DNA of 64,000 bases from an uncultured Alistipes sp. (GTDB taxonomy: Bacteria > Bacteroidota > Bacteroidia > Bacteroidales > Rikenellaceae): contig NZ_OZ007039.1 of assembly GCF_963931675.1 (NCBI RefSeq), forward strand, positions 1 to 64,000. The letters are read 5' to 3'. This document shows positions 4,233 to 25,006 of this stretch, in pieces. Each line of letters opens with the position of its first letter. Positions within the stretch are counted from its first letter, which is position 1. The notes beneath the pieces were generated by a model that saw only the letters and a list, made by a program, of their open reading frames with translations, was not told where the DNA came from and did no database searches. Both the position numbers and the translations under genes were made by a program.

Positions 4233-5192
4233 CTATAACCGGAAGCCTTTCGGTTTCTTGGATAGCGTATCATTCCTCTTTTTGACAGATTGCGATTGCT
4301 CTTTCCTATCGGCTATTCGTTTCTGTAAATATTCGTTCAGATCTTTACATCCACTGTAGATTTGCGAGGCGTCACGTATATACCGAGTAGCATCATACTC
4401 CTTTCGGATTTGCTGTACTGCTTCCATTCCTGCACGGTCATTGTCAAAGAAACAGTGGATGCGCTCATAGCTTCCCAACGTATAGAGTGCCTTGGGAACA
4501 TTGGCTACGGAATTAAGAACCATGTAATCCTGTCTGTCGAAGTCGGGTGATTGCGGACAGCTTTCCAGCTTTAAGGAAAGAAAGGAAAGGTAATCCATAA
4601 ATCCCTCAAAAACGTAACATCTACTCCTTGGCTTTCCTGACTGTCTGATATGGGATATTTCTTTCGGTGCGATACATCCCTTGAAATATCGGTTGCGAAT
4701 TTCATATCCGCCCGATATGTTCGGAAAGGCAATGGCGAAATACCGTTTGCCGTTGTGGGTGAAACGGGCTTCCTTACATTCTCTTTTCGCCAGTGCCGTG
4801 TTTATCCCTCTTTCCTGTAGGTAGGCAAGCAGGGCAGGAGAAGCCAGCTGTACAATGTCCAATTGCTGAAAACTCGGTTCGGAAAATGATTGCTTGCCAA
4901 AAGAGAAAGATATGGGACGTATGTGTGGTGTCTGCTCCTCAATTTTCTGTAGAAGATAAGGCACATAATCGGAACAGTAGAGTTCCTCTGCCAGTGCGAT
5001 GATATTTCCACCTTTACCGATTGCAAAATCATACCATTGGTTGCGTTCGGTATTTACTTTGAACGAGGGTTTTGTCTCTTCCCGTAACGGGGATTTATAC
5101 CACAAGTTGATACCTTGCTGTTTGACGGGAGAATGTCCCAAGCTGTACAGAAAATCCGCTATCCTGATTTGTTTTGCTGTCTGTATATCCAT
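4233..5192 (-). CDS. Toprim DNA primase of the IME
   Basis: Encodes 319 residues. The N-terminal part (IADFLYSLGHSP…YDFAIGKGGN) resembles the CHC2-type zinc-binding region of DnaG-like primases but keeps no clear Cys/His set. The second half has Toprim motifs: CYVFEGFMDYLSFL with the catalytic Glu and CFFDNDRAGMEA with the Asp-x-Asp pair. Such primases accompany RepA-like ATPases on mobilizable Bacteroides elements and prime replication of the circular or transferred strand. It lies downstream of the repeat-rich gap 5193-5408 and the ATPase gene, on the same strand. Confidence 0.82.
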   Translation of the reverse strand: MDIQTAKQIRIADFLYSLGHSPVKQQGINLWYKSPLREETKPSFKVNTERNQWYDFAIGKGGNIIALAEELYCSDYVPYLLQKIEEQTPHIRPISFSFGKQSFSEPSFQQLDIVQLASPALLAYLQERGINTALAKRECKEARFTHNGKRYFAIAFPNISGGYEIRNRYFKGCIAPKEISHIRQSGKPRSRCYVFEGFMDYLSFLSLKLESCPQSPDFDRQDYMVLNSVANVPKALYTLGSYERIHCFFDNDRAGMEAVQQIRKEYDATRYIRDASQIYSGCKDLNEYLQKRIADRKEQSQSVKKRNDTLSKKPKGFRL

Positions 5193-15700: not shown

Positions 15701-17763
15701 TGTGTGAGACATGAGAAATCCAGAGAATGTGTTAAACAGTCTGTCTAAACACAGCAAGGACTCAAGCTACAAGTTTGAGCGGCTGTACAGAGTGCTGTTT
15801 AATGAAGAAATGTTCTATGCTGCTTACCAGCGTATTTACAGCAAGGCGGGCAACATGACGGCAGGAGCCGATGGGCAAACCATCGACGGAATGAGCATCG
15901 ACCGCATTAAGCAACTGGTTGATAGCCTTAAAAATGAGACTTATCAGCCAGCTCCGTCCAAAAGGGCGTACATCCCGAAGAAAAACGGGAAAAAACGCCC
16001 GCTTGGCATCCCCTCATTCAACGACAAATTGGTGCAGGAAGTGGTTAGAATGATATTGGAAGCTATCTACGAGGGCAGTTTTGAGCATACCTCGCACGGG
16101 TTTCGGCCCGGGCGTAGTTGCCATACCGCACTTATCAGCATACAGAAGTCATTCTCGGCCGTGAAATGGTTCATTGAGGGCGACATCAAAGGGTTCTACG
16201 ACAACATCGACCATGATGTGTTGATAAGCATCCTGCGGGAACGCATCGCCGACGAGAGATTTCTACGGCTTATCCGCAAAATCCTGAACGCCGGTTACGT
16301 CGAAGATTGGGTATTTCACAGAACGTACAGCGGCACGCCGCAGGGCGGTATTGTCAGTCCAATACTGGCGAATATCTACCTCGACAAACTCGACAAGTAC
16401 ATCCGTGAGTATATCAACCGGTTCAACAAGGGGGAGATACGGAAAGGCAACGCTCAGTACAAGCTCTACGAGCAGCGGAGATACCGGCTGGCTAAGAAGC
16501 TGAAAAATGAGAAAGATGAAAAGGTAAGAGAACAGATGACCGCTGAAATCAAGCGGCTACGGGAAGAAAGGAACAAGTTTCCCGCGCGTAATGAAATGGA
16601 CAGCAGTATCAGACGCATAAAATACGTTCGGTACGCAGATGACTTTCTGATTGGAATAATCGGTAGTCTGGAAGACTGCAAAACGGTAAAAGAGGACATT
16701 AAAAACTATTTAAAAGAGGCTCTTAAACTGGAACTGTCAGATGAAAAGACACTGATAACCAGCGCACAGAAACCCGCCAAGTTCCTCGGATTCGACATTT
16801 TTATCCGTAGGAGCAATGATTTACGCAAGGATAAAAACGGCAGAACGGTCAGGGCGTTCGGACACGTCCCGGTCTTGTATCTGAATTTTGAAACAATGCG
16901 AAAGAAACTCTTTGACTACAAGGCCGCAAGAATAGCGGTCGTGAACGGCAAAGAGGTATGGAAATCCATCGTCAGAACGTACATGATCGATTTGGACGAC
17001 CTGGAAATAGTCAGTCAGTTCAACGCCGAAATCCGGGGATTCTACAACTACTACTCGATAGCCAATAACAGCCCGGCCATCAACTCTTTCTATCACATCA
17101 TGTCATACAGTATGTACAAGACTTTCGCAAGAAAGTACAAGTCGTCTGTTAAGAAAATCCTGACCAAGTATAAAAAGGGAGGGACGTTCAAAGTGGCATA
17201 TGAGAACAAGAAGGGTAAAATGCTCTACCAATCATTCTATCACGAAGGCTTCAAACGCAAAAAAAATGCAGGGGCTACCTCATGCGACACTATCCCGCGG
17301 ACAGTTACAATAACTGGTGGTCGTAATAGCCTGATGGAAAGGCTGAAACTCCAAGTCTGCGAATTATGCGGTGCTACGGATAAACTCGAAATGCACCACG
17401 TCCGCAAACTTAAAGACCTGACAGGTAAGTCCGATTGGGAGAAGAGAATGATCGCCCGGCGCCGGAAGACGCTGGCGGTCTGCTCAAAGTGTCATGCAAA
17501 GATAGACCCTGACCGACGGATCAGACTGAATTAGTTAGTGGAGAGCCGGATACAGGGAGACTTGTAAGTCCGGTTCGGGGGCGAGTGCCCGGAAACCTAT
17601 CATAGAAATATGACAAGGCGCTGGGTACTTAGCCTACTGCTACACCACCGAGGAGCGGGAGAAGATGGAGGTGATGGCCCGGGCCGAGAAGCTCGGCGGT
17701 GACATCCAGGCAGCCATCCGCGCGCTGGCCCGCGAGCGGGAAAACCAAAAATCCCAGCCATGA
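12764..17763 (+). CDS. traG: TraG conjugation ATPase (VirB4-like), split by a group II intron
   Basis: Exon 1 is 12764-15151 and exon 2 is 17629-17763; splicing gives about 840 residues. The start MRGTLKTSTLESKFPLLAVE matches the family; in-frame ATGs lie a few codons earlier. Walker A is GPSGSGKSFF (about residue 450) and Walker B is MILIEECWKAL, as in VirB4-type motors of the mating channel. Without splicing, translation stops 4 codons into the intron (LVRP) and loses only the last 44 residues (AYCYTTEE … RALARERENQKSQP). The stop overlaps the next start (ATGA). Confidence 0.9.
15152..17628 (+). mobile_element. Group II intron inserted in traG
   Basis: The 5' end is GTGCG at 15152, the standard boundary. 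Near the 3' end is a textbook domain V, from GAGCCGGATACAGGG at about 17541 to GTCCGGTTC with a GAGA-containing bulge. A domain VI stem (GTGCCC … GGGTAC) follows, with the intron ending in AC at about 17628. About 560 nt of structured RNA precede the reverse-transcriptase gene. Exon joining gives EEYL-LAYCYTTEE in frame. The 3' boundary could be off by up to 3 nt, which would change one Leu but not the frame. Confidence 0.88.
15711..17534 (+). CDS. Group II intron reverse transcriptase/maturase with HNH endonuclease
   Basis: Encodes 607 residues. RT motifs appear in order: KKRPLGIPSFNDK, HGFRPGRSCHTAL, GDIKGFYDNIDHD, GTPQGGIVSPILANIYLD and the active site YVRYADDFLIG (about residue 305), then a maturase (X) domain. 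A charged insertion of about 60 residues lies between RT blocks (KLKNEKDEKVREQ). The C-terminus has the HNH endonuclease: CELCGATDKLEMHHVRKL, then CSKCHAKID. Such proteins splice their own intron and copy it into DNA by retrohoming. All visible catalytic residues are intact, so it is probably active. Confidence 0.95.
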   Translation: MRNPENVLNSLSKHSKDSSYKFERLYRVLFNEEMFYAAYQRIYSKAGNMTAGADGQTIDGMSIDRIKQLVDSLKNETYQPAPSKRAYIPKKNGKKRPLGIPSFNDKLVQEVVRMILEAIYEGSFEHTSHGFRPGRSCHTALISIQKSFSAVKWFIEGDIKGFYDNIDHDVLISILRERIADERFLRLIRKILNAGYVEDWVFHRTYSGTPQGGIVSPILANIYLDKLDKYIREYINRFNKGEIRKGNAQYKLYEQRRYRLAKKLKNEKDEKVREQMTAEIKRLREERNKFPARNEMDSSIRRIKYVRYADDFLIGIIGSLEDCKTVKEDIKNYLKEALKLELSDEKTLITSAQKPAKFLGFDIFIRRSNDLRKDKNGRTVRAFGHVPVLYLNFETMRKKLFDYKAARIAVVNGKEVWKSIVRTYMIDLDDLEIVSQFNAEIRGFYNYYSIANNSPAINSFYHIMSYSMYKTFARKYKSSVKKILTKYKKGGTFKVAYENKKGKMLYQSFYHEGFKRKKNAGATSCDTIPRTVTITGGRNSLMERLKLQVCELCGATDKLEMHHVRKLKDLTGKSDWEKRMIARRRKTLAVCSKCHAKIDPDRRIRLN

Positions 17764-18714: not shown

Positions 18715-21700
18715 ATGAAACCACGCATCATTCTGCTCTGCCTCGGGCTGCTCCTGACAGCCCGGGCTGCGCAGGCACAATGGGTCGTCACGGACCCTAC
18801 GAACCTCGCACAGGGAATCATCAACTCCACCAAACAGATCGTCGAAGCGGCCCGCAACGGATCGACCCTTCTGCAAAGTTTTCAAGAGACCGTAAAGATC
18901 TACGAGCAAGGGGTGTGACACGAAAAGTTACATAAATGACTGTTTAACAGAGGATAGTCCATCGTGTATGGAAGCCGGAGTTTAAACCTGCTGTTCCGTC
19001 AGCAGTAGCCTACGGGCGCGTGCATTACAAGCAATTGTTTTGTACGAAGCCGCCCGGACAAAGTAGCCCGCCGCAAGGAAAGCGGAAGCCGTGAGGCAGA
19101 CGCAATTATCGCCAGCATCAGGCGGTTAGGGAGCGAGGCTGAGTGATATGGCTAACGTAAGTGAACTGTCATTGACGCATCGTAAGGTATGAAACAAGCT
19201 AAAGATGCTATAAGGCTTGAACCAAAAGGTAAGCAGCCGGATAACCTCGAACCTTGTGGGGTTACACGGACACAAGCGCTGCCGGTGTATAGACAGAGCC
19301 TAAGTCATTCGATGTCATTTATGTAAAACGTGGTAAGCCCGTATCTCTCCTGTTTAAGGACAGGTAAGTGAGCCGCAAGGCAAACCGAATGGGGTGCGGG
19401 TATAGGATTGCGGAAAAAGCGAATGCCCTTCTGTAATGGAATGGATAGGAGTTTCAATGTTACTCCACGGGAAACCGGGCAGACTTCCGCATTAGGTAAC
19501 TCTTTACAAGGAACTTGTTGAACTTTTTAAAGGAGGAAAGCAAATGAACGAGATGAAAAGATCGTGTGCACCTACTGACCGACAGCCGCACTGGGAGAAT
19601 ATCGACTGGGACAAATGCGACCGGGAGGTTAGAAAGCTGCAAGCACGTATTGTAAAGGCTCAAAAGGAAGGTCGCTACGGCAAGGTCAAATCCTTGCAGT
19701 GGCTGCTGACCCACTCGTTCACGGCCAAAGCTCTGGCTGTGAAACGGGTGACTTCCAACAAAGGGAAGAATACATCGGGAGTGGACAAGGTATTATGGTC
19801 TACTCCTGCTGCCAAGGCGAATGCCATTCGTGTGTTGAGAAGGCGGGATTACAGGCCTATGCCTTTGAAACGGGTAAACATTCGCAAGAGCAACGGGAAA
19901 TTACGCCCGTTGGGAATACCCACGATGAAAGACAGAGCCATGCAGGCATTGTATCTCATGGCATTAGACCCCGTAGCAGAAACTACTGCGGACAACCATT
20001 CCTACGGATTCCGCAAAGAGAGGTGCACGGGTGATGCCATCCATCAATGCTACATCAATCTGTCCAAAGAATCATCGCCGCAGTGGGTTCTGGAGGGCGA
20101 CATTAAAGGATGCTTCGACCACATCAGCCATGAATGGCTGCTCAACAATATCCCGATGGATAAAGTGATGCTCCGGAAATGGCTTAAAAGCGGTTTTGTA
20201 TTCAACAAACAGCTCTTTCCCACCGAAGAGGGTACTCCCCAGGGAGGTATCATATCGCCGACTCTTGCGAACATGACGCTTGACGGCCTGCAAGCAATGC
20301 TCGAAACCAGATTTCAGAGAATTGATTTGTATGGGCCCCGAAGAACGTATTATCCGAAAGTGCATCTTATCCGCTACGCAGATGACTTCATCGTCACCGC
20401 TCAACGTAGGGATATGTTGGAACAGGAGGTCATGCCGATGATCAAAGAGTTTCTTCAAGCCCGGGGGCTTACCCTGTCAGAAGAGAAGACGAAGATAACT
20501 CACATTGAAGATGGCTTTGACTTTTTGGGCTTCAATATTCGGAAGTACAAGGGCAAGCTCCTCATTATGCCGTCTAAAGAGAGCCAAAAGAGATTCCAGC
20601 AGAAAGTAAATGAGATCGTCAATTCTCACAAAGCAATCCCGCAGGAATCACTCATCAGGCTTCTTAATCCGGTCATAACCGGGTGGGCGAACTATTACCA
20701 ACACGTCGTGTCAGGCAGGATTTTCCAGAAGATGGACTTCCACGTCTACCAGAAACTTTTGCAATGGTCGCTCCGGCGACATCCGGCGAAAGGGAAATGG
20801 TGGGTAGTCGAAAAGTATTTCCACAGACACCGGGGCAGGACATGGGTTTTTGCCGCACCTTTCGACAAGGAGGGCAGAATGGAACTGTTCCCGATCAAGT
20901 GGCTGACGGATACTAAAATTACCCGTTATGCAAAGCTGAAATGCGATGCCAATCCCTATGATCCGGAATGGCGGGAGTATTTCGAGAGGCGGGAAACCCG
21001 CTTGATGCTCCAGTCTGCGAGAGGCAGAAACACGATTGTCCGAATCTGGAAACGCCAACAGCGCAGATGTCCCTGCTGCGGGGAACCCATAACCCGGAAT
21101 ACCCCTTGGAGGGTTGCCGAGAAAACGGTAAACGGACATGCCGAGCGAACGCTTGTGCATAACCACTGCGGCAGGTTTAATGTCAAACCCTTTAACAAAG
21201 AAGAATATGAGCCGGTTTCATAACAGAAACTTTGAGTTGCTTGAGCCGTATGATGCGAAAGTATCATGTACGGTTCTTAGAGGGGAAAGCATCCGCAAGG
21301 ATGCCGACCTACTCGACAAGAAATATTACGACGCACTGAAGGCGGTCAACAACCTCGTCCGCTCGGCCCGCAAGGTCCAGCAGTGCATGTTGCTCGTCGG
21401 GGAGATCTCCGACATCTACGTCAACGGCTATCAGCGCATGGTGGTCGATGACAATTTTTCGGCCGCGGAACTGGCCGCCATCGCCACGGGATATGCCCGG
21501 ATCATCGAGGAGTCGGCCGGGGAACTCAAGGAGCTGCAGGATATTGTCAACCCCACGGACATGTCGCTGACGGACAAGGACCGTATCGACGTGGTGGAAC
21601 GGGTCTACGGCGTGCTGCGCCACCATCGGGATCTGGCCCGCTACTACACGCGCAAGAACATCTCCATCTCGCTGCTGCGCGGCACCCGGCGCAACGACCT

Positions 21701-21751: not shown

Positions 21752-22807
21752 ATGGTACAGGCACTCTCCATTTCGGAGAACATCCACACGATTCTCCGCG
21801 TTCTCTACGACGACATGATGGTTCTCTGCTATCCGATGGCCAAAGTTGCCACGGCCATAGCCGGAATCGGGGCCCTGGTCTACATCGCCTGCCGCATCTG
21901 GCAGGCGATGGCCCGGGCCGAACCCATCGACCTCTTCCCGCTGCTGCGCCCTATGGCGATCGGCATCTGCATCATGTTCTTTCCGACCCTTGTGCTCGGG
22001 TCGCTCAACGGAATCCTCTCTCCTCTGGTGCAGGCCACCCACTCGCTGATGGTAGGCCAAACCTTTGACATGCAGGAGTGGCGGCAGGAGTGTGCACGCC
22101 TCGAACAGGAGAGCCGCGAGCGGCTTCCGGCAGAGAGCTACTACACCGAGGATGAAGAGAAGGAGCGCGAGTTGCAGGCCCTGGGCATCGACGAGCAGTC
22201 GCAGCAGTCCCTCGACCGGATGCAGAGCGAGCGGAAGTCGTGGAGCTTCAAGGGGATGATCCTGAAGGCCCTTACCACGATCATGGAGCTCTTCTTCGCC
22301 GCCGCGGGCGTGATTCTCGACGTGCTGCGGACCTTCTACCTGATCGTCCTCTCGCTGCTCGGGCCCATCGCCTTCGCCATCTCGATCTTCGACGGATTTC
22401 AGAATACCCTGGTGCAGTGGTTCTCCAAGTACATCTCCATCTACCTGTGGCTTCCCATCTCGGACCTCTTCTCGGCCATCATCGCCCGGCTGCAAACCCT
22501 CTCGCTGCAGCACGACGCCGAAATGATGGCGCAGGACTACAACTGGTATTTCGACATGTCGAACAGCATCAATCTGATCTTCATCCTCGTGGCCATCTGC
22601 GGCTATCTCTGCATACCCTCGATCGCCTCGTGGGTCGTGCAGGCCAACGGCTTCTCCTCCTACAACAAGACCACCTCGCGCGCTACGTCGCTCGTGAGCG
22701 GCGGTGCCGGATGGATCACCGGGAAGGTTTGGGCCGGGACCAAAAGTACGGTAGGTGGCGTCGGAAAGGGGCTGGCAACCGCAGCTCGCCTGATTATCAA
22801 AAAATAG
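21752..22807 (+). CDS. traJ: TraJ conjugal transfer membrane protein
   Basis: Encodes 351 residues with several membrane helices. One pair is near residues 25-50 and 65-95 (PLLRPMAIGICIMFFPTLVL), and there are more between 165 and 225 (IMELFFAAAGVILDVLRTFY, LLGPIAFAISIF) and near 275-300. A long soluble insertion lies at about 105-165. This is the VirB6-like topology of TraJ in CTnDOT-type elements, a core channel protein of the inner membrane. It follows traI by 2 nt. An IS110-family element was inserted just downstream, between traJ and traK. Confidence 0.88.
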   Translation: MVQALSISENIHTILRVLYDDMMVLCYPMAKVATAIAGIGALVYIACRIWQAMARAEPIDLFPLLRPMAIGICIMFFPTLVLGSLNGILSPLVQATHSLMVGQTFDMQEWRQECARLEQESRERLPAESYYTEDEEKERELQALGIDEQSQQSLDRMQSERKSWSFKGMILKALTTIMELFFAAAGVILDVLRTFYLIVLSLLGPIAFAISIFDGFQNTLVQWFSKYISIYLWLPISDLFSAIIARLQTLSLQHDAEMMAQDYNWYFDMSNSINLIFILVAICGYLCIPSIASWVVQANGFSSYNKTTSRATSLVSGGAGWITGKVWAGTKSTVGGVGKGLATAARLIIKK

Positions 22808-22922
22808 TTCCTATGTTTACGATCCGAGTAGACCGCACCGATAGCGGATAGAAGAAAAAAGCTATCGAGATTTTGGTTAGATTAAAGCAGCCAAACCTTA
22901 ACTAACTAAAATAGCGATAGCC

Positions 22923-24002
22923 ATGAGAGGACAAAGAAACGAAATTAGTTTCAGAGGACAAAAGATTTATATAGGGATCGATGTCCATTTGAAGAGTTGG
23001 TCGGTTACGGTCTTGTCGGAGACCTCCGTGCTGAAGAAGTTTAGTCAGCATCCGAGTCCGGAAGCATTGCACGGATTTCTGGCGCGGAGTTATCCGGGAG
23101 CCGAATATCATTCGGTATACGAAGCCGGCTTCTGCGGGTTCTGGATACACGAACGGCTGACGGCATTAGGGATTGACAACATCGTGGTCAATCCGGGGGA
23201 TGTTCCGACCAAGAGCAGTGAAAAGCTTCGTAAGAGTGACGCCGTGGATAGCAGCAAGCTGGCGCGGAGTTTACGAGCCAACGAACTGAAAGGCATTTAC
23301 ACGCCGGACAGCGCATCGTTGGAGATGCGTTCCTTGATAAGATTGAAGAACTCGATAACAAAAGACACGACGCGTCAGAAGAACCGGATCAAGTCCCAAT
23401 TGCGGTATCTGGGCATTGGGATTCCACAAGAGTTCCTCGAACCGTTCTCCAACTGGTCAAAACGTTTTATTGCCTGGTTGAAGGAGGTTGAAACCCTCAC
23501 ACCGAGCGGGCGTCAGGCCCTCGACATTCAAATCCGGCATCTGGAGGAGCTACGCCGCCAGAAGTTGGAGATGACACGGGCTTTGCGGACATTGGCCAAG
23601 ACGGACCGGTTTCGCGAACCGCTGCGGTTGATTATGACCGTTCCGGGGTTCGGACAGGCTACGGGAATGGCATTTCTTTCGGAGATATGCGACATTGCCC
23701 GTTTCCGCAATGCCGAACAACTGGCCGCCTATATCGGGATGATCCCGATGTGCCATTCCAGTGGAGAGAAAGATGGGACAGGAGACATTACCGTGCGAAG
23801 AAACGCCGTCATGCGCTGTAACCTGATAGAGGCCGCATGGGTGGCGGTACGTCAAGACCCTGCGATGAACCTGTTTTTTACTGAACAGTGCAAGCGAATG
23901 CCAAAGAGCAAGGCCATCGTAAAGGTCGCTCGCAAACTGGTCAACAGATTATACTTCGTACTCAAGCACCAGACTGATTATGTCAATAGTGTCATGTCAT
24001 AG
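22923..24002 (+). CDS. IS110-family transposase (DEDD/serine recombinase)
   Basis: Encodes 359 residues. The N-terminal RuvC-like domain has IGIDVHLKSWSV (first Asp), SVYEAGFCG (Glu) and KSDAVDSSKLARSL (Asp pair), the DEDD set. A coiled-coil linker follows, then the C-terminal Tnp domain with MTVPGFGQATGMAFLSEI and PMCHSSGEKD, which holds the catalytic Ser. Enzymes of this family are guided by an RNA made from their own element. Upstream DNA contains nested GCTATCG/CGATAGC repeats at 22840-22920, the last just before the ATG. Confidence 0.93.
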   Translation: MRGQRNEISFRGQKIYIGIDVHLKSWSVTVLSETSVLKKFSQHPSPEALHGFLARSYPGAEYHSVYEAGFCGFWIHERLTALGIDNIVVNPGDVPTKSSEKLRKSDAVDSSKLARSLRANELKGIYTPDSASLEMRSLIRLKNSITKDTTRQKNRIKSQLRYLGIGIPQEFLEPFSNWSKRFIAWLKEVETLTPSGRQALDIQIRHLEELRRQKLEMTRALRTLAKTDRFREPLRLIMTVPGFGQATGMAFLSEICDIARFRNAEQLAAYIGMIPMCHSSGEKDGTGDITVRRNAVMRCNLIEAAWVAVRQDPAMNLFFTEQCKRMPKSKAIVKVARKLVNRLYFVLKHQTDYVNSVMS

Positions 24003-24325
24003 AGAAACCCTTCCGGTAAACGGATTTTCCCAGAGAGAATACTACATGATGTTTGCGGCGTTAACGTCCGCTTAAAATAGTTTGCTCCTCTGGCCTTTGT
24101 AAACTAATACAGGAACATGCGGCAGCGTGCTGACCGCTGTGGAAAGTCTGTTTACCGAAGGTTTTTTACGGGTTCTGAAATCTCGGCTTTCGAAAGGGCC
24201 AAAGGTGTTAAGCACGAAGTGTCTCCGCACCGGCTCGATCAGAGGCCGGCGGAGTCACTTGTGCCTTGACCTTTGGCCGGGAAGATCTTCAAGAAACGCA
24301 ATATGTTGTTAATGAAATAAAAACA
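24003..24325 (+). ncRNA. Candidate bridge (seek) RNA of the IS110-family element
   Basis: In the IS1111 subgroup the guide RNA comes from the non-coding part downstream of the transposase, and this segment is that part. It contains an extended hairpin at 24197-24278: GGCCAAAGGT pairs with ACCTTTGGCC, then AAGTG with CACTT, CTCCG with CGGAG, and CCGGC with GCCGG around the loop. Small internal bulges lie between the stems. Compensatory evidence from relatives was not available, so RNA status rests on position and folding. Confidence 0.6.
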
Positions 24326-24382
24326 AATCTAACCAAAAACTTTGATCCAAATTTATTTGGATTGTAACTGGAAAATCGCATC

Positions 24383-25006
24383 ATGGAATTCAAATCATTG
24401 CTGAACATCGAAACCTCCTTCCGGCAGTTGCGCCTCTATGCGCTCATCTTCGCCGGGATCTGCGCCGTGGTGACCATCACGGCCGTCTGCCTCTCGTATG
24501 CCTTTGCCGAGCGGCAGCGCGAGAAGATCTACGTCCTCGACAACGGGCGCTCGCTCATGGTCGCCCTCTCGCAGGACCTTGCCCAGAACCGTCCCGTCGA
24601 GGCCCGCGAGCATGTACGCCGCTTCCACGAACTCTTCTTCTCGCTCTCGCCCGACAAGGCGGCCATCGAGTCGAACATGGTGCGGGCCCTGCAGATGGCC
24701 GACAAGAGTGCCCTGTCCTACTACAAGCTCCTGCAGGAGAAGGGATTCTTCAACCGACTGATTGCCGCCAATGTCTCGCAAATGGTCCATGTGGACAGCA
24801 TCCGCTGCAACTTCGACCGCTATCCCTACGAAGCCACGACCTACGCCCGGCAGCGCATCATGCGTGAGAACACGATCACCGAGCGGTCGCTCGTCACGAC
24901 CTGCCGGCTGGTCAACGTCTCCCGCTCGGACAACAACCCGCAGGGGTTTCTGGTCGAGGATCTGATGATTGTTGAAAATAAGGATCTGCAGACCTATGAC
25001 CGTTAA
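24383..25006 (+). CDS. traK: TraK conjugal transfer protein
   Basis: Encodes 207 residues. It opens MEFKSLLNIETSFRQLRLYA and has one membrane helix at about 20-40 (IFAGICAVVTITAVCLSYAF), then a soluble domain. This matches TraK of CTnDOT-type elements, a VirB8-like protein that links inner-membrane and periplasmic channel parts. It overlaps traL by 11 nt, and the operon continues tightly to traN. The upstream 40 nt is the remainder of the traJ-traK spacer beyond the IS110 element. Confidence 0.9.
   Translation: MEFKSLLNIETSFRQLRLYALIFAGICAVVTITAVCLSYAFAERQREKIYVLDNGRSLMVALSQDLAQNRPVEAREHVRRFHELFFSLSPDKAAIESNMVRALQMADKSALSYYKLLQEKGFFNRLIAANVSQMVHVDSIRCNFDRYPYEATTYARQRIMRENTITERSLVTTCRLVNVSRSDNNPQGFLVEDLMIVENKDLQTYDR

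What the first reader, a model, noticed from the sequence alone, without database searches (positions are those of the whole stretch)
24003..24325. Candidate bridge RNA of an IS110-family element
The non-coding DNA downstream of the transposase folds into a long hairpin (24197-24278) with four stacked stems split by small bulges. In the IS1111 subgroup this is where the target-selecting RNA is encoded. The loops could be matched to the insertion site in the traJ-traK spacer, and the element's target code read.
Basis: partly seen in the sequence, partly recalled or inferred. Interest (0 to 1): 0.7.

Follow-up and report, generated by a model that had tools for sequence, protein, structure and literature searches.

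The report
Bridge RNA guide aimed at start codons
A gut bacterium's jumping gene carries, right behind its transposase gene, a small guide RNA that spells out where it lands; the guide matches the DNA just before the start codons of genes, and all nine landing sites found lie there, but the guide is a different stretch from the hairpin first noticed.

Summary
The RNA is about 24008-24167, directly 3' of the transposase (22923-24002), with a closing stem, a target arm and a donor arm. The hairpin 24197-24278 folds very well but occurs only in copies and remnants of this Alistipes element and fits no flank. Across 26 related elements the right-target guide fits its own right flank (170 against 97 +/- 6 permuted; 0 of 20,000), and in 19 the left-target guide its own left flank (79 against 38 +/- 5; 0 of 20,000). 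Helices covary (13 pairs changed on both sides, 6 in shuffles). RNA position, guide order and subterminal repeats are those reported for IS1111: a new member of a known kind. The unexpected part is the address, A-rich/N/A/7-8 nt/ATG: at all nine distinct sites a start codon begins 5-9 bases past the junction, and relatives with other guide letters but a kept CAU also hit start codons. No RNA was measured; expression and mechanism are inferred.

The parts
22807..24374 (+). Whole element, 1568 bp (GTTCCTATG...AACTGGAAA); core A at 22806 is shared by target and donor
   Evidence: 8 identical copies in the genome; empty sites in same-species genome G152 and in G002/G005 read left flank + A + right flank
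22799..22806 (+). Left target AAAAAA-T-A (core A 22806); TraJ keeps a stop codon (TAA in the empty site, TAG with the element)
24375..24385 (+). Right target ATCG-CATC-ATG, ending in the traK start codon (24383)
22812..22819 (+). TATGTTTA, -7-like box in the left end; with TTTG at 24356-24359 of the right end it would form a Bacteroides-type promoter (20-nt spacer) at the circle junction
   Evidence: sequence; promoter consensus from general knowledge; function inferred
22815..22825 (+). Left subterminal inverted repeat GTTTACGATCC
   Evidence: sequence comparison with 24359-24368, by eye
24359..24368 (+). Right subterminal inverted repeat GGATTGTAAC
   Evidence: by eye
22861..22921 (+). Hairpin in the tnp leader (GCTATCG 22861-22867 with CGATAGC 22915-22921), ending next to the tnp start codon
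   Evidence: z -4.7; arms covary in 17 rows, 119 of 136 pairs against 71 permuted
22923..24002 (+). IS110-family transposase, 359 aa
   Evidence: PF01548, PF02371; NF033542 'IS110 family RNA-guided transposase'; distant match to IS621 and ISCro4 in PDB
24008..24167 (+). Bridge (seek) RNA; closing stem 24009-24030 with 24141-24161, then a T run that would end transcription
   Evidence: conserved in 14 aligned relatives; z -4.2; covariation
24031..24092 (+). Target-binding arm: basal stem 24031-24035/24088-24092, inner stem 24055-24060/24065-24071
   Evidence: 4 of 5 basal pairs changed on both sides; 91 of 96 standard pairs against 74 permuted
24040..24054 (+). Right-target guide UACUACAUGAUGUUU; CAUGAUG (24045-24051) pairs with CATCATG of the top strand at 24379-24385
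24072..24080 (+). Left-target guide UUAAAAUAG, same sense as the left target (pairs with its bottom strand)
24111..24116 (+). Donor guide AGGAAC, pairs with GTTCCT of the left end (22807-22812)
24119..24137 (+). Inner stem of the donor-binding arm GCGGCAG...CUGACCGC
   Evidence: 5 of 7 pairs changed on both sides
24138..24147 (+). Donor guide UGUGGAAAGU, same sense as the right end TGGAAA plus the start of the left end
   Evidence: sequence; relatives with right end ATAGAAG carry AUAGAAG here, by inspection
24197..24278 (+).

Best explanation
The element is an IS1111-type IS110-family insertion sequence, recently active in an Alistipes-like genome. RNA from the 3' non-coding end (about 24008-24167) folds into a two-armed bridge RNA and binds the transposase (inferred from the family). 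In the target arm, CAUGAUG pairs with the top strand right of the insertion point (CATC-ATG) and UUAAAAUA pairs with the bottom strand on the left (A-rich tract, N, A). In the donor arm, AGGAAC and UGUGGAAAGU pair with the two ends joined in the circular form. The transposase recombines circle and target at the shared A, leaving the element a few bases upstream of a start codon. Shown here: ends, empty sites, guide-flank and guide-end matches, covarying structure. Inferred: RNA expression, binding, circle intermediate, strand exchange.
For: Transposase family. Ends and empty sites. RNA conserved across Bacteroidales elements. Covariation: 91.6% of cells paired, 13 pairs with both sides changed, 0 of 500 shuffles as high; basal stem. 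Right-target guide against own flank, 26 elements: 170 against 96.8 +/- 5.7, 0 of 20,000; left-target guide, 19 elements: 79 against 37.9 +/- 5.5, 0 of 20,000. Donor guide against left end, 19 rows: 79 against 61.3 +/- 3.7, 0 of 20,000. Guide order (top-strand complement first) is the published IS1111 order (PMC11187229).
Against: No RNA or transposition data. The window element's left-guide match is weak by itself (16 of 200 shuffled A-rich flanks as good), so it rests on the cross-element test. The spacer from core A to ATG is 7 nt in seven sites and 8 nt in two, while the guide as written predicts one fixed length. L021, L126 and L104 fit their right flank poorly. Guide loops and arms were registered by hand, not blindly, and related elements are not independent.
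Confidence: 0.94

Rival explanations
1. The hairpin 24197-24278 itself is the bridge RNA.
For: Very stable fold, right segment of the element.
Against: Absent from all relatives outside Alistipes; no match to either flank beyond shuffles; a neighbouring RNA meets every guide test.
Confidence: 0.02
2. The conserved 3' segment is only a structured 3' untranslated region or terminator, and the target is chosen by the protein.
For: The closing stem is followed by a T run, like a terminator.
Against: Loop letters change together with each element's own flanks and ends; closely related elements with different guides (G917 a and b) have different right-flank letters.
Confidence: 0.04
3. The bridge RNA is real, but the start-codon position of the sites reflects selection for harmless insertions more than guide choice.
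For: Insertions inside genes would often be lost; 11 strict sites in the genome are empty.
Against: The guide itself spells CATCATG, and 9 of 9 sites hold the ATG of an ORF of at least 84 codons, 8 of 9 with A and T at -3 and -2 of it. Relatives on the same scaffold without CAU in the guide (L016-L019) do not sit at start codons.
Confidence: 0.12

Closest known systems
IS1111-group seekRNA elements (ISEc11, ISKpn4, ISPa11; Siddiquee 2024, PMC11187229)
   Same: RNA gene downstream of tnp, subterminal inverted repeats, top-strand guide 5' of bottom-strand guide, no target duplication beyond the shared base
   Different: Targets there are REP and gene-cassette sites among others; here the DNA just before start codons. 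Tnp is 359 aa against 330-350 aa reported for IS1111. Here the donor guides are also readable
IS621 bridge RNA (IS110 group; Durrant 2024, PMC11208160)
   Same: One loop for target and one for donor, each pairing with both strands
   Different: RNA upstream of tnp, opposite guide order, CT core dinucleotide; here the core is one A with the next base free in the close group
ISCro4 and IS621 transposases in PDB (9t56, 8wt6)
   Same: C-terminal half alignable (E 1e-9 and 2e-7)
   Different: Distant in sequence; no detectable phmmer match over the N-terminal half

Membership tests
IS110 family (whole) | DEDD (RuvC-like) plus Transposase_20 domains | tested here: met
   PF01548 and PF02371 above cut-off; NF033542 219.9 bits, cut-off 140
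IS1111 group | Long non-coding region downstream of tnp | tested here: met
   372 bp after tnp, 116 bp before it
IS1111 group | Subterminal inverted repeats of 7-17 bp | tested here: met
   GTTTACGATCC / GGATTGTAAC, imperfect in this copy, longer in L019; judged by eye
IS1111 group | Top-strand guide precedes bottom-strand guide | tested here: met
IS1111 group | Transposase falls in the IS1111 clade of ISfinder | not tested
   no ISfinder set on hand; at 359 aa it is slightly longer than 330-350
Bridge/seek RNA | Guides match own target and own donor ends | tested here: met
Bridge/seek RNA | Covarying two-arm structure | tested here: met
Bridge/seek RNA | RNA is expressed, binds the transposase and is needed for movement | not testable with these tools
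   needs experiments
IS110 group (IS621 type) | RNA upstream of tnp and a core dinucleotide matching at both ends | tested here: not met
   RNA is downstream; close group shares only A, the next target base is A, G, T or C. Diverged relatives show AG at both ends

The most novel reading that the evidence does not exclude
Groups of Bacteroidales IS1111 elements have evolved bridge RNAs whose right-target guide keeps CAU, the complement of the start codon, in a fixed place, so that one guide addresses many genes. Insertion sits between the A-rich leader and the ATG without breaking a coding sequence, and the right end even puts GGAAA at ribosome-binding distance. The core dinucleotide is relaxed to one A, with a flexible spacer to the right-target match.
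Probability: 0.55. Interest if true: 0.6.

Novelty: new member of a known kind. Interest (0 to 1): 0.5.

Why it matters
It gives a complete, readable IS1111 bridge RNA for Bacteroidales, with target and donor guides, established ends and empty sites, and about 25 related natural guide-target pairs. The start-codon address shows how a programmable transposon can use a common motif as a low-damage, multi-copy target. The one-base core and movable spacer bear on how strict the IS110 recombination core must be, which matters for tool design.

Tried and rejected
Rfam at gathering and relaxed thresholds: no family for this RNA; the mir-306 match on the opposite strand of the hairpin (28.6 bits, cut-off 52) and the RAGATH-32 match are below threshold and dismissed. 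A scan of viral contigs gave no relative; plasmids only distant Acaryochloris hits at 32-33%. RNAalifold's automatic structure missed the basal target stem and was replaced by one taken from the single-sequence fold. An outward promoter at the right end reading into traK was looked for by eye; none convincing. Literature searches for start-codon targeting and for IS110 elements in Alistipes found no earlier report in the open-access library, which is not proof of absence.

Full report
What is there. The window carries an IS110-family transposase (22923-24002, 359 aa; Pfam DEDD_Tnp_IS110 and Transposase_20; NCBIfam 'IS110 family RNA-guided transposase') between traJ and traK of a Bacteroidetes conjugative transposon (TIGR03782 and TIGR03781). 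The genome is Alistipes-like: the two nearest named records, 99-100% identical in transposase, are Alistipes.

Ends. The genome holds eight full copies with near-complete identity over the element. The flanks of all eight change at the same two points. For four copies a same-species genome (G152) has the empty site, and for the traJ-traK copy two genomes of the genus (G002, G005) do. In all five the empty site is left flank + A + right flank. The element is therefore 22807-24374 with one shared A at 22806. The insertion leaves traJ with a stop codon (TAA becomes TAG), and the traK ATG begins 9 bases past the right junction.

The RNA. Straight after the transposase stop, about 160 bases are conserved in relatives whose transposases are only 57-80% identical, and the architecture persists at 41-48%. 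The single-sequence fold has a long closing stem, a target arm and a donor arm (z -4.2). On 14 sequences and 38 named pairs, 91.6% of cells are paired against 86.0 shuffled, 13 pairs are changed on both sides against 6.0, and sliding partners by one column nearly halves pairing. The basal target stem alone: 91 of 96 standard pairs in 16 distinct rows against 74.4 +/- 2.4 when arms are exchanged between elements. A T run follows the closing stem.

The guides. The 5' strand of the target loop, read as reverse complement, matches each element's own right flank: L013 AATAGTTATG, L016 AGATCGTCA, L019 AAAAAAAGGT, L017 ATACGTTT, L090 GAATGCAA, L091 TCACTGGT, L119 ACCAAGCC. The sum of scores is 170 against 96.8 +/- 5.7 when guides and flanks are exchanged between elements (0 of 20,000). 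The 3' strand, read directly, matches the own left flank in fixed register: 79 against 37.9 +/- 5.5 (0 of 20,000). The donor-loop guide matches the own left end: 79 against 61.3 +/- 3.7 (0 of 20,000). The other donor guide follows the right end: TGGAAA elements carry UGGAAA, ATAGAAG elements carry AUAGAAG (by inspection). The order, top-strand complement first, is the one Siddiquee et al. report for IS1111 and the reverse of IS110 (PMC11187229), and Durrant et al. place IS1111 bridge RNAs in the right end (PMC11208160).

24197-24278 is real and strong (z -8.0) but is found only in copies and remnants of this one element and fits no flank. In relatives its place is taken by other sequence, some of it structured. 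Its role is open; a barrier to transcription is a guess.

The address. The nine distinct sites of this element read A-rich (-6 to -2), a non-A base at -1, A, then 7-8 nt to ATG, with C-A-T-C before the ATG in most. At all nine, an ORF of at least 84 codons starts with an ATG that begins 5-9 bases past the junction; an ATG with an ORF of 50 or more codons within 20 nt is found at 11.7% of random flank positions. In a Bacteroidaceae genome (G917), two sister elements with guides CUACAUAUCUUUU and CUAUCAUUACUUU sit before start codons at seven of ten sites. The letters CAU stand at the same place in ten of sixteen close guides. On the transposase tree the CAU elements need two changes, so repeated origin or loss is possible; L025 and L033 are frameshifted and their places unsure. 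Elements on the same scaffold without CAU at that place (L016-L019) do not sit at start codons.

Core. In this close group only A is common to donor and target; the next target base is A, G, T or C, and the product keeps the donor G on the left and the target base on the right. Diverged relatives have AG at both ends, which is CT on the other strand, the IS621 core. So the second core position seems relaxed in this group. This is an inference from end sequences.

Judgement. The identification as an IS1111-type bridge RNA is firm by comparative evidence, short of RNA measurement. It is a new member of a known kind. The start-codon address, the one-base core and the movable spacer are the parts that could be more than that.

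Noticed in passing
window 22861-22921: Hairpin in the transposase leader, covarying across relatives, closing next to the tnp start codon; in some relatives a TAnnTTTG box lies between its arms, so it may block translation of read-through transcripts.
   Followed up: partly
window 24356-24374 joined to 22807-22819: The circle junction would form TTTG - 20 nt - TATGTTTA, close to the Bacteroides promoter consensus; the boxes recur in relatives.
   Followed up: partly
L013, L022, L092-L094, right ends (e.g. L022 about 4290-4450): Relatives from Dysgonomonas, Bacteroides and others hold an extra structured block (GTCAGGATGCTTATTGCTG..AGCAGAGCC..CATCCTGA) between bridge RNA and right end, absent from the Alistipes element; function unknown.
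   Followed up: partly
L015-L019, L026-L029 left ends: Left ends of some relatives carry a GC-rich block ending in GTTTTTCATGAG or GTGTTTTTCATAGT between the terminus and tnp, possibly a terminator against incoming transcription.
   Followed up: no
window 18987-21317: Group II intron with a 559-aa reverse transcriptase/maturase just upstream of traJ; a second intron-type hit at 17541-17637.
   Followed up: no
L009/L010 (G000 3053255-3053619) and L040/L048 (G152): Degraded remnant of a sister element (83-84% identical) in two genomes of the species, with the middle deleted.
   Followed up: partly
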